A stretch of 33,984 nt of DNA. It comes from Verrucomicrobiia bacterium (lineage in GTDB: Bacteria; Verrucomicrobiota; Verrucomicrobiia; Limisphaerales; JAOAIM01). Below the pieces are notes generated by a model that saw only the letters and a list, made by a program, of their open reading frames with translations, was not told the DNA's origin and made no database searches. Shown in pieces: positions 7,134-33,984 of the stretch. Within the stretch, counting starts at the first letter, position 1. Each line of letters starts with the position of its first letter. The translations under genes were made by a program, and so were the position numbers. The stretch lies in contig JAOAIM010000016.1 of assembly GCA_026414705.1 (NCBI GenBank), positions 1 through 33,984 on the forward strand, read 5' to 3'.

Positions 7134-8336
7134 TTACTCGCGCAAGCTGCTGCGCTCGACGAACAAAGCCAGCGAGGCGGTGTAACCGTGAACGAAGTTT
7201 TTATCGCCCACCGGGCCGAGCTCGCCGTTGCAGAAGAAACCCGCGACCGTCAACGGCCCCAGGTGTTGTTGAACCATGCGCGCGTCATGATCCGGCGCGC
7301 CAAACAGGCTCTGGCCGCGCCCGTTGCAGCAGCACAGGCAACCGCCATAAACCGTCGCCCCGCCCAGTCGCTGCCGCAACCGCCCGAGCAGCTCCCGTAA
7401 ATCCTCGCTCGCCGCAGCGGCGTCGCGCCGTTGAAATTGCACGGTCTGCCCCGGACGCGGCAGCGCGCCCACCGCCAGAATGCCCGAGTTCGGATCGCCG
7501 CCCAGCAGGTTGCGCACGAGGAAATCGCCGCGATGAAATTCTTCCAGGTATTCGTTGATAACCAGACCGATGAAAAGGTTGCCTCGGGCGAGGCGTTGTT
7601 CGCGGGGCGAGAGTTTGCCGACGGTCTCGGCCAGCACCTCGTAGGCGGGCCGGTTGCCGATGCGGTGGATGAGGTTTTGCTCCACGTGCGTGAGCGTCCA
7701 GGTCTCACCGATGGGCGTGCAACCCTGGGACACCAGCCCCGTCAGCGCAACGTCGCCGCCCACCGAGACCGCCACACCGCCCTCCTCGAACACGTCGCCG
7801 TTCAGATACACCTGGGCGATTTGCTCCTGAAAATCGCCGCTGGCCAGACCGCCAAACACCGGCGCGGGCGCGTAAGCCTCGTTCCATCCGTTCAACCACG
7901 ATTCGGCGTCCAGGTGAAACGGGTCAATGAACGCCAGCCAGCCGTTGGTCTGGTCGGCCGACACGCCGGTCTCGATTTGCCAGTAACCCGGCCCGTTGGC
8001 TTCTTCGACCTGCTCCTGCGTGAAGTGCACGCCGCGCAACGTCGCGCCCGGCAACGAGTAAAGCCCCAACACCAGCCCGGCATTCTCCTCCAACTCGCGC
8101 GCGCCCACGATCAGGCTCTGGCTCGAACAACCCGCCAGGAGCGGAATCCGCGCCTGCAGGCGAAGAATTTCGAGCACCGCGCGCGCGTGCGGGAAAAACG
8201 CGGGCGACATGAAGACCAGCCCCAGGGACACGTCCGGCGCGGCCAGTTGCGCGCGCAAGTCGGCAGCCCACTGCTGGAGGCCGCGTTCATCAAAGCCCCC
8301 GCCCCAGTGCCCGGCCACGGACCATTTCGTGTTCAC
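7134..8336 (-). CDS. FIST domain sensory protein
   Basis: 400-residue protein with no signal peptide or membrane segment. Residues about 30-230 fit FIST_N (LLAGCSSQSLIVG, VFGGLASGDF), and residues about 240-385 fit FIST_C (NLFIGLVINEY, FLVRNLLGGDP, GPLTVAGFFCNGELGPVGDKNFVHGYTAS split over the end). FIST proteins are thought to bind small ligands such as amino acids and to act as input modules or stand-alone sensors. No signalling output domain is fused or adjacent. It lies 118 nt downstream of infA on the same strand and converges on the PmoA-like gene across a 35-nt gap. A CLCCCNGRG stretch near residue 320 is unusually Cys-rich. Confidence 0.88.
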   Translation of the reverse strand: MNTKWSVAGHWGGGFDERGLQQWAADLRAQLAAPDVSLGLVFMSPAFFPHARAVLEILRLQARIPLLAGCSSQSLIVGARELEENAGLVLGLYSLPGATLRGVHFTQEQVEEANGPGYWQIETGVSADQTNGWLAFIDPFHLDAESWLNGWNEAYAPAPVFGGLASGDFQEQIAQVYLNGDVFEEGGVAVSVGGDVALTGLVSQGCTPIGETWTLTHVEQNLIHRIGNRPAYEVLAETVGKLSPREQRLARGNLFIGLVINEYLEEFHRGDFLVRNLLGGDPNSGILAVGALPRPGQTVQFQRRDAAAASEDLRELLGRLRQRLGGATVYGGCLCCCNGRGQSLFGAPDHDARMVQQHLGPLTVAGFFCNGELGPVGDKNFVHGYTASLALFVERSSLRE

Positions 8337-8454
8337 GCCCGGAACCTACGCACGCAGACCGGAGGCTCAAAGCGCAAAGTGCGCTGGAGGAAAACACCGG
8401 CCGAAAATTTCTCGGGCCACCCGGGATACGCCCGGCACCCGGCCGCCCACCTTG

Positions 8455-32962: not shown

Positions 32963-33590
32963 CGGTCCGACGCCAGAGCACGGTTCGACCCCGCAGCGAA
33001 ATCTCCCCGCGCGCCAGCGCCGCCAGACATTGCGGATATAACTCATGCTCGGCGACCTGAATCCGCGCGTGCAACGTCTCGGGCGTGTCATCGTCATAGA
33101 CCGGCACGGCGCATTGGGCGATGATCGGCCCGCTGTCCACCCCGGCGTCCACAAAATGCACCGTGCAGCCGGTGATCTTGACGCCGTGCTCCAGCGCCTG
33201 CCGCCACGCTTCCAGGCCGGGAAATGCCGGGAGCAGTGACGGATGAATGTTCACAATGCGCCCCTCAAACGCGCGGAGAAATTCCCCCTTCAAAATCCGC
33301 ATGAACCCCGCCAGCGCCACGCAATCCACGCCCGCCTCCTGCAACGCGGCCACATACGCACGCTCGGCCTCCTCGTCCAGCTTGGTGCGAAATCGCCCCG
33401 GCGGGATGAACCGCGCGGGCAACCCGCGCGCCCGCGCCTCGCGCAAAATGCCCGCGTCCTCCACGTCACTGAGCACCAGCGCGACTCGCGCCGGAAGCCG
33501 ACCCGCCCCGATGGCGTCGGCAATCGCCACGAAATTCGAGCCCTTGCCCGAACCGAGAATGCCCAAGCGGAATTCCTTCGCGCCGTTCAC
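32928..33590 (-). CDS. purN: Phosphoribosylglycinamide formyltransferase
   Basis: 220 residues, GTG start. It transfers the formyl group of 10-formyltetrahydrofolate to GAR in purine synthesis. Seen: [12 protein letters not shown] (GAR phosphate site), [13 protein letters not shown], the catalytic [12 protein letters not shown] with N114 and H116, [15 protein letters not shown] with the catalytic D152, and [21 protein letters not shown]. All three catalytic residues are kept. The length is usual for the family, with a Cys/Arg-rich tail ([15 protein letters not shown]) where it overlaps the convergent small gene. Confidence 0.95.
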
Positions 33591-33700
33591 GCGACACTCT
33601 TAACCGCTGGTGCACTGCCGGAGCAAGCACCGTGGCGCTCCCGCCGTCCGTTCAAGTCCTCGTTCGTTGTTCGATGTTTCGCGGGGCGCCCGCCCGCGCT

Positions 33701-33915
33701 CCCTCTCCCAGCGGGAGAGGGCCGGGGTGAGGGAGAACGTGTCGTGGGCGTGAGGGTGTCCACATGCTCGCGGGACTCTGTTGCGCCCCTTCGGGGCTTG
33801 AGAGGGTTTGGGGGCCGCGCGAACCCAGGGCGTTGCCCTGGGCTAACCTTGTGCTCGCGCCTTCGGCGCTCAAGGCCGTTGGTGAAAAAGATGTTTTCGG
33901 CGAGACGCCGAAAAC
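33701..33915. repeat. Array of five perfect hairpins with 3-nt loops
   Basis: CCCTCTCCC-AGC-GGGAGAGGG (33701-33721), GCCCC-TTC-GGGGC (33785-33797), CCCAGGGC-GTT-GCCCTGGG (33824-33842), GCGCC-TTC-GGCGC (33857-33869) and GTTTTCGGCG-AGA-CGCCGAAAAC (33893-33915). Stems are 9, 5, 8, 5 and 10 bp, all perfect, each with a 3-nt loop. CCGGGGTGAGGG follows the first. Individual motifs resemble dispersed extragenic palindromes seen in Planctomycetes and Verrucomicrobia and other phyla. Confidence 0.8.
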
Positions 33916-33945
33916 CGCACGCCAGACGCGCGCCCCCATCTGTGC

Positions 33946-33980
33946 ACAATTTGCAACTGCCAATTTGCAATTTGCAATTT
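33946..33980. repeat. ATTTGCA short tandem repeat at window end
   Basis: The stretch holds three ATTTGCA units: one at about 33949, then two in direct tandem from 33963 followed by ATTTC. It may continue past the window edge. Confidence 0.6.
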
Positions 33981-33984
33981 CGCC

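What the first reader, a model, noticed from the sequence alone, without database searches (positions are those of the whole stretch)
33701..33915. Five perfect inverted repeats in a row, all with 3-nt loops
Stems of 9, 5, 8, 5 and 10 bp with loops AGC, TTC, GTT, TTC and AGA lie in 215 nt of non-coding DNA upstream of purN. Equal loop size with different stem sequences suggests a composite structured element, perhaps an assembly of several dispersed palindrome types or a structured RNA.
Basis: partly seen in the sequence, partly recalled or inferred. Interest (0 to 1): 0.55.

Follow-up and report, generated by a model that had tools for sequence, protein, structure and literature searches.

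The report
Orphan transposon-end hairpins in repeat mosaic
The row of small hairpins is one of dozens of copies of a mosaic of mobile DNA repeats; three of the five hairpins match the ends of a family of single-strand transposases, ends that an RNA database lists as a small RNA of unknown function.

Summary
The five perfect 3-nt-loop hairpins are real and far beyond chance. They lie in one copy of a dispersed mosaic repeat (82 BLAST matches in this genome). Hairpins 2-4 (5-8-5 bp) form one unit; read on the minus strand: outer 5-bp hairpin, 14 nt ending in TAG, 8-bp hairpin, 26 nt, inner 5-bp hairpin. The same plan, with other stem sequences, flanks Y1 (IS200-like) transposase genes as inverted ends in genomes of the same order and in Bacteroidota. 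The unit overlaps Rfam RF01687, Acido-Lenti-1 'sRNA' (this copy 29 bits, cut-off 37). The transposases carry the Tyr motif Y-x-x-x-Q-x-x-H-H, the signature of TnpA subclass 1.2, for which a 2018 survey lists no REPs. I conclude that Acido-Lenti-1 is largely the DNA end (REP/REPIN-like) of these transposases, and that the window holds a transposase-less derivative fused to two other palindromic repeats whose mobiliser I did not find. No Y1 gene was found in the window's own genome (about 90% complete). An RNA role is not excluded. Binding, cleavage and mobility are inferred.

The parts
33662..33773 (+). Module A: end of a TTCGATG-like tract, then hairpin 1 and the arm GGGGTGAGGGAG
   Evidence: 34 near-full copies aligned in own genome; hairpin 1 alone makes up most listed matches outside the own genome; inverted pairs about 100 bp apart at 3 of the 17 loci inspected for it
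33701..33721 (.). Hairpin 1 (9 bp, loop AGC), REP-like, mobiliser not found
   Evidence: pattern near none of 70 Y1 loci (30, 40)
33785..33869 (-). 5-8-5 transposon-end unit (outer hairpin 33869-33857, TAG foot, middle hairpin, inner hairpin 33797-33785)
   Evidence: only hit of a sequence-free 5-8-5 descriptor in the window; same plan beside Q--HH Y1 genes
33785..33797 (.). Hairpin 2 = inner hairpin HP1 (5 bp; loop GAA on the minus strand)
33824..33842 (.). Hairpin 3 = middle hairpin HP2 (8 bp; loop AAC on the minus strand)
   Evidence: RF01687 positions 1 onward
33843..33845 (-). TAG foot at the base of HP2 (GTAG, TTAG or CTAG in most own copies)
33857..33869 (.). Hairpin 4 = outer hairpin HP3 (5 bp; loop GAA on the minus strand)
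33824..33870 (+). Match to Rfam RF01687 Acido-Lenti-1, 29 bits, below the gathering score of 37
33893..33915 (.). Hairpin 5 (HP4, 10 bp, loop AGA); terminator-like on the minus strand
33917..33933 (.). Sixth hairpin (HP5), imperfect here, perfect in many copies; with HP4 a separately dispersed unit
   Evidence: 33876-33942 matches 18 of 58 genomes
33947..33980 (+). CAATTTG heptamer tract at the end of the repeat

Best explanation
The row is a mosaic of mobile palindromic DNA repeats. Its core (hairpins 2-4) is one end of a Y1 transposase element: outer 5-bp hairpin, a linker ending in (T/C)AG, 8-bp hairpin, about 20-26 nt, inner 5-bp hairpin. In complete elements two such ends in inverted orientation enclose a gene for a TnpA of about 150 aa with the subclass-1.2 Tyr motif; miniature forms are the two ends without the gene (REPIN-like), and single ends are spread through genomes. 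Inferred mechanism: on single-stranded DNA TnpA binds the 8-bp hairpin, the (T/C)AG foot helps choose the cut, and TnpA moves ends in cis or in trans. The window's genome has no Y1 gene that I could find, so its copies look like orphans; in the window's copy the end is fused to module A and to HP4/HP5, and fusions of this kind recur in the genome as a unit of about 300 bp. Shown: anatomy, copy number, inverted placement around tnpA genes, conserved polarity and spacing, clustering of the HP2 type on the protein tree. Inferred: binding, cleavage, mobility, loss of the transposase, and how the fusion spread.
For: 82 BLAST matches in own genome. Inverted flank pairs of at least 14 bp at 33 of 46 Q--HH Y1 loci, 1 of 12 NP loci, 4 of 11 unassigned, against 6 of 420 random sites and 0 of 690 shuffles. 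Sequence-free 5-8-5 descriptor in correct polarity beside 14 of 47 Q--HH genes (both sides at 9), 0 of 12 NP, 0 of 11 unassigned, expectation 0.001 per side. Around 161 HP2 words in 118 GTDB stretches the outer hairpin is on the correct side in 121 and the wrong side in 3, the inner in 89 and 11, with 22 and 9 different stems. RF01687 matches (E up to 1) in 16 of 30 Y1 loci. In 6 of 6 GTDB stretches with a Q--HH gene the word lies 44-166 bp from the matched part of the gene. HP2 type CCCAGGGC needs 2 changes on the protein tree, shuffled mean 6.9, 0 of 500 as low. RF01687 and Y1 counts per genome correlate over 58 genomes (Spearman 0.50). Gene-less inverted pairs keep an inner hairpin on at least one side in 15 of 18.
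Against: No Y1 gene in the window's own genome. The window's unit scores below the Rfam cut-off. 13 of 46 Q--HH loci lack the inverted pair and 33 of 47 fail the strict descriptor, while 5 left and 2 right flanks show it in the wrong polarity. In L085 one of the two words is in the wrong orientation for an inverted end. No mobiliser was found for module A or HP4/HP5. The fold of the 99-nt unit is only mildly better than shuffles (z -1.9 and -1.5). No insertion, excision or empty site was seen.
Confidence: 0.8

Rival explanations
1. Acido-Lenti-1 is a functional small RNA, as Rfam files it, and the window's row is a structured RNA upstream of purN; the nearness to transposases is secondary.
For: The family's authors rated it 'probably' RNA (PMC2864571, table passage). 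Stems are kept while letters change between genomes (22 outer and 9 inner stems), and stems in own copies vary less (2.9%) than linkers (12-22%).
Against: Inverted ends around transposase genes and gene-less inverted pairs; G-T 8 against A-C 18 on the Rfam strand in own copies; no promoter-like site found in 33500-33984; dozens of copies per genome in modules joined in several orders.
Confidence: 0.1
2. The repeats are kept by the host as transcription terminators or insulators between genes, whatever their origin.
For: HP4 on the minus strand is followed by ATCTTTTTC and scores as terminator-like; HP4/HP5 fold well as single strand (z -4.55).
Against: One terminator-like site was found and shuffles give 1.0 on average; this does not explain inverted placement around tnpA or the 5-8-5 plan. 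It may hold beside the transposon origin.
Confidence: 0.12
3. The mosaic spread within this genome mainly by recombination and gene conversion between repeat islands, not by any transposase acting on the fusion.
For: No Y1 gene and no RVT_1 in own genome; modules are joined in several orders inside islands; own B copies average 85% identity.
Against: A canonical cluster of five ends remains in the same genome; the assembly is about 90% complete, so a gene may be missing. This rival concerns the spread of the fusion, not the origin of the 5-8-5 unit.
Confidence: 0.3

Closest known systems
Rfam RF01687, Acido-Lenti-1 RNA
   Same: Two of the three hairpins of the unit (HP2 and HP3) with CTA between them; window copy 29 bits; five other copies in the genome above the cut-off
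   Different: Rfam describes an sRNA of two hairpins; here there is a third (inner) hairpin and an inverted placement around Y1 genes. The window copy is below the gathering score
REP/REPIN elements with their TnpA_REP (RAYT), 'REPtrons'
   Same: 8-bp hairpin with a 3-nt loop and an AG-ending 5' foot, high copy number, inverted pairs, cognate Y1 gene in relatives; the S. maltophilia REP is an 8-bp palindrome with a 3-nt loop (PMC8266576, passage)
   Different: Foot is mostly N(T/C)AG, not strictly GTAG; two extra 5-bp hairpins at fixed distances; the proteins score as IS200/IS605 TnpA rather than REP_Tyr_transpos in NCBIfam
TnpA_Y1 subclass 1.2 (PMC6006769)
   Same: DHVH, WQ, Y-x-x-x-Q-x-x-H-H, about 150 aa (table passage)
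   Different: The survey lists no REPs and generally no IS200 ends, mostly in Cyanobacteria and Bacteroidetes; here such genes have inverted three-hairpin ends
IS200/IS605 insertion sequences
   Same: Y1 transposase family and subterminal hairpins with a 5' guide
   Different: Ends are inverted copies of one another with three hairpins each, and gene-less copies are common; the window copy has no gene
Class 3 and subclass 2.6 TnpA with 'atypical secondary structures' (PMC6006769)
   Same: Several unusual hairpins beside the gene, copies elsewhere in the genome; class 3 mainly in Planctomycetes, Acidobacteria, Proteobacteria
   Different: Tyr motifs differ (YV..(AENY)EQ and YIH(QN)NP); class 3 foot is CnGA (passages)
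BIMEs (bacterial interspersed mosaic elements)
   Same: Mosaics of palindromic repeats in intergenic islands
   Different: Here several unrelated palindrome families and heptamer tracts are mixed

Membership tests
REP/REPIN elements | Hairpin with a conserved 5' tetranucleotide foot (GTAG type) | tested here: inconclusive
   24 own B copies read: TTAG 12, GTAG 7, CTAG 3, CGAG 1, TCAG 1; in 161 GTDB words mostly ATAG, CCAG, TCAG, TTAG, only 2 GTAG
REP/REPIN elements | High copy number in the genome | tested here: met
   82 BLAST matches for the mosaic; 38 RF01687 matches at E up to 1, five over the cut-off
REP/REPIN elements | Occurrence as inverted pairs | tested here: met
   Met for the family: neighbouring words under 1000 bp apart in GTDB stretches: -+ 21, ++ 7, +- 5, -- 4; own cluster C61 has both orientations. 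The window copy itself is single
REP/REPIN elements | Cognate Y1 transposase flanked by the same repeat | tested here: met
   Met in relatives and Bacteroidota
REP/REPIN elements | Cognate Y1 transposase in the same genome | tested here: not met
   0 Y1_Tnp matches in own genome, about 90% complete
REP/REPIN elements | Single-strand binding and cleavage by the transposase | not testable with these tools
   needs protein and DNA
Rfam RF01687 Acido-Lenti-1 | Score at or above the gathering cut-off of 37 bits | tested here: not met
   Window copy 29 bits; the linker between the hairpins is 14 nt against 12 in the model; five copies at C61 meet it
Rfam RF01687 Acido-Lenti-1 | Being a transcribed RNA | not testable with these tools
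   no RNA data; G-T 8, A-C 18 on the Rfam strand
TnpA_Y1 subclass 1.2 (for the neighbouring genes in relatives) | Motifs DH(I/V)H, WQ, Y-x-x-x-Q-x-x-H-H and about 148 aa | tested here: met
   47 of 70 examined Y1 genes have the Tyr motif; no tree with the published members was made
IS200/IS605 insertion sequence | Transposase gene inside the element | tested here: not met
   none in the window copy; none in the own genome

The most novel reading that the evidence does not exclude
Subclass-1.2 Y1 transposases form a further type of REPtron with their own three-hairpin (5-8-5) ends, the plan being kept between the window's order and Bacteroidota. Rfam's Acido-Lenti-1 'sRNA' is two of the three hairpins of that end, so a catalogued RNA family of unknown function is mainly transposon DNA. 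These ends also seed composite mosaics and may carry passenger genes, such as the PemK-like toxin gene that lies between such ends in this genome.
Probability: 0.75. Interest if true: 0.68.

Novelty: new variant of a known kind. Interest (0 to 1): 0.6.

Why it matters
It puts an Rfam family of unknown function into a mechanistic setting: a 2026 paper says little is known about Acido-Lenti-1 and suggests that it may regulate nearby protease genes (PMC13298647, passage). It supplies candidate DNA substrates for a transposase subclass that a survey lists without REPs (PMC6006769, passages), so that its biochemistry can be tested directly. Annotations that report many Acido-Lenti-1 'ncRNAs' would need re-reading as mobile DNA.

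Tried and rejected
Rfam at gathering scores on the window: nothing. Retroelement mobiliser: no RVT_1 in own genome. Y1 mobiliser in own genome: none. A tnpA remnant inside the own C61 cluster: tblastn of Q--HH proteins gave nothing better than E 0.11. Module A beside Y1 genes: its pattern was near none of the 30 loci and none of the 40. Of 19 loci around repeat matches in relatives, 2 hold a Q--HH hit (L062, L065), and these were brought in by a module B and an HP4/HP5 match, not by A. Literature by the letters of hairpin 1: 430 papers hold them, 30 were listed, none about a bacterial repeat by its title; 'small dispersed repeats' with palindrom, nested, bacteri: 0 papers. Compensatory changes inside the own genome: 0 of 779 stem cells in 28 copies, which are too alike. 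DNA folding of the 99-nt B unit: z -1.9 and -1.5, and neither strand's minimum has all three hairpins; HP4/HP5 fold well (z -4.55). In some searches twelve minus-strand loci were not turned; corrected, where the inverted-pair count was again 38 of 69.

Selection: the rows add up to 266 Y1 matches in 58 genomes; I examined 70 of them: the 30 loci returned by the tool and 40 that I chose from genomes rich in the repeats and to include the long NP type. One (L219, short flank) was dropped before the pair count. The two highest RF01687 counts (86) equal the number of candidates scored and are lower bounds. On the tree L214 was labelled by its right end, though its left end is of the CCCAGGGC type. 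26 of 51 tree rows had no label.

Full report
Observation. Five or more repeats of this kind came up in 2 of 20,000 dinucleotide shuffles, the summed stem length in 0 of 20,000, and none of 1,673 overlapping 215-nt windows outside the element reached five. The gene next to it on the minus strand is a formyltransferase, as purN would be. The row goes on: a sixth hairpin, imperfect in this copy, at 33917-33933, and a CAATTTG tract at 33947-33980.

It is a dispersed repeat. BLAST of 33650-33984 against the window's genome (3.94 Mb, 390 contigs, completeness 89.95) lists 82 matches at E up to 0.001, several of them at contig ends. Aligned copies show two modules: A (33662-33773, with hairpin 1) in 34 near-full copies and B (33778-33933, with hairpins 2-5 and the sixth) in 28. 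In the fetched loci A and B are contiguous in 15 cases, B lacks an adjacent A in 18 (6 of them with under 60 bp of room) and A lacks an adjacent B in 25 (8 with under 60 bp of room). Islands also hold heptamer-like tracts and further palindromes. Among the 28 B copies stem letters differ from the commonest letter in 2.9%, loops in 4.2%, linkers in 12-22%; mean pairwise identity is 85%.

The lead. Rfam finds nothing at its own cut-offs. With a loose threshold hairpins 3 and 4 match RF01687, Acido-Lenti-1, at 29 bits (cut-off 37). RF01687 matches at E up to 0.001 in 41 of 58 genomes of the order searched, in 31 of 58 above the cut-off, and in at least 86 copies in two of them. The authors of the family rated it 'probably' RNA and probably not cis-regulatory (PMC2864571, table passage).

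The link to transposases. Read on the other strand, the hairpin carries a 5' (T/C)AG foot, like REP elements, whose mobilisers are thought to be Y1 transposases (PMC3733652, section 4 part 1 of 4 and passages; PMC8266576, passages). Y1_Tnp genes are found in 49 of 58 genomes, and not in the window's own. I examined 70 of 266 matches. By the Tyr motif 47 are Y-x-x-x-Q-x-x-H-H ('Q--HH'), 12 are Y..NP and 11 could not be assigned. Inverted sequence pairs of at least 14 bp in the 450-bp flanks occur at 33 of 46 Q--HH loci, 1 of 12 NP loci and 4 of 11 unassigned loci, against 6 of 420 random sites in GTDB stretches and 0 of 690 shuffles. RF01687 matches (E up to 1) occur in 16 of the 30 Y1 loci returned by the tool, 7 of the 30 having one above the cut-off.

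Anatomy of the end. In the 17 loci printed most flanks share one plan: an outer 5-bp hairpin with a 3-nt loop, a linker of about 12-14 nt that ends in (T/C)AG, an 8-bp hairpin with a loop of 3-4 nt, about 20-26 nt, an inner hairpin of 5 bp or more, then the gene, and the mirror image on the other side; some flanks are degenerate or have a longer middle hairpin. The window has this plan at 33869-33785 on the minus strand, with linkers of 14 and 26 nt, and it is the only hit of a sequence-free 5-8-5 descriptor in the 34 kb. In the correct polarity that descriptor lies beside 14 of 47 Q--HH genes (left 13, right 10, both 9), 0 of 12 NP and 0 of 11 unassigned; in the wrong polarity it lies at 5 left and 2 right flanks of Q--HH genes, where units occur in arrays; the expectation is 0.001 per side and polarity, from 4 hits in 689,475 bp away from the word. 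Around 161 HP2 words in the GTDB stretches, chosen by the middle hairpin alone, the outer hairpin is on the correct side in 121 and on the wrong side in 3, the inner one in 89 and 11. Outer stems come in 22 sequences and inner stems in 9: pairing is kept while letters change, though these hairpins were found by asking for perfect pairing, so the wrong-side count is the control.

Other phyla. Six of the 118 GTDB stretches hold a Q--HH gene, and in all six a word lies 44-166 bp from the matched part of the gene: L085, L088, L145, L176 and L184 are Bacteroidota by title, L109 is Verrucomicrobia. In L088 and L184 the gene has inverted words on both sides; in L085 one of two words is in the other orientation. 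On a tree of 51 Q--HH proteins (25 labelled) the CCCAGGGC type of HP2 needs 2 changes, shuffled mean 6.9, 0 of 500 as low; the four Bacteroidota proteins form one branch. This fits recognition of HP2 by the protein; near-copies can also cluster a label. Words less than 1000 bp apart are in the order -+ in 21, ++ in 7, +- in 5 and -- in 4 cases. Of 18 -+ pairs less than 250 bp apart, too close to hold the gene, 15 keep an inner hairpin on at least one side and 10 on both.

The window's genome. Besides 33 matches below the cut-off at E up to 1, it has five above it, all at C61:7430-8426 (38.5-50.7 bits). They lie between genes for NADH dehydrogenase chains 4L and 5, on both sides of a PemK-like toxin gene. 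No tnpA remnant was seen there. Over 58 genomes the numbers of RF01687 and Y1 matches go together (Spearman 0.50, p 8e-5); the nine genomes without Y1 have 15, 0, 2, 1, 0, 4, 0, 0 and 0 copies, the 15 being the window's own.

RNA or DNA. In own copies mismatches on the Rfam strand are 8 G-T, 18 A-C and 19 others in 779 stem cells, not what G-U pairing would preserve, though the numbers are small. In 33500-33984 no promoter-like and one terminator-like site were found (shuffled mean 1.0). DNA folding of the B unit is only slightly better than shuffles. Transcription could not be tested.

Novelty. NCBIfam puts two of three Q--HH proteins tested above the cut-off for IS200/IS605 transposase (58.2 and 86.1 against 55) and the third just below (53.9); the REP-associated model stays far below its cut-off. 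PMC6006769 describes subclass 1.2 by the same motif, with 'no' in the REP column and generally no IS200 ends, mostly in Cyanobacteria and Bacteroidetes (passages). Assignment to that subclass rests on motifs; no tree with the published members was made. Three papers in the library hold 'Acido-Lenti-1': the original table, a list of annotated ncRNAs (PMC10059132, passage), and a paper of 2026 that says little is known and suggests regulation of proteases (PMC13298647, passage). By the searches, in open-licence papers only, I saw no paper that links the family to transposases.

Open: the mobilisers of module A and of HP4/HP5, how the fusion spread, and whether any copy moves today.

Noticed in passing
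L266 (own genome G000:C61, about 7430-8426): Five canonical Acido-Lenti-1 ends in both orientations, on both sides of a PemK-like toxin gene, between genes for NADH dehydrogenase chains 4L and 5; perhaps a passenger gene carried between ends.
   Followed up: partly
L012, L018 and other own-genome islands: Further palindromes, e.g. GCCGACTGCCAGTCGGC next to CGGATTTCCAATCCGCGCTACG; the second read on the other strand has a GTAG foot before the hairpin, like a REP.
   Followed up: no
window 33947-33980 and own-genome islands: Heptamer-like tracts (TTCGATG, CAATTTG, GTTCAAA) border the palindromes; they recall the short tandem heptamers of filamentous cyanobacteria (recalled, not looked up).
   Followed up: no
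L050, L055, L059 and listing: Hairpin 1 with its GGGGTGAGGG arm occurs as inverted pairs about 100 bp apart in several genomes of the order, REPIN-like, with no transposase found for it.
   Followed up: partly
L205, L217: Arrays of several Acido-Lenti-1 units in direct and inverted order lie beside the transposase gene, as if ends multiply locally.
   Followed up: no
genomes G002 and G036: HP4/HP5 occurs without the rest of the row in many copies (16 and 13 matches listed, from 16 scored candidates each), so it is a repeat family of its own.
   Followed up: no
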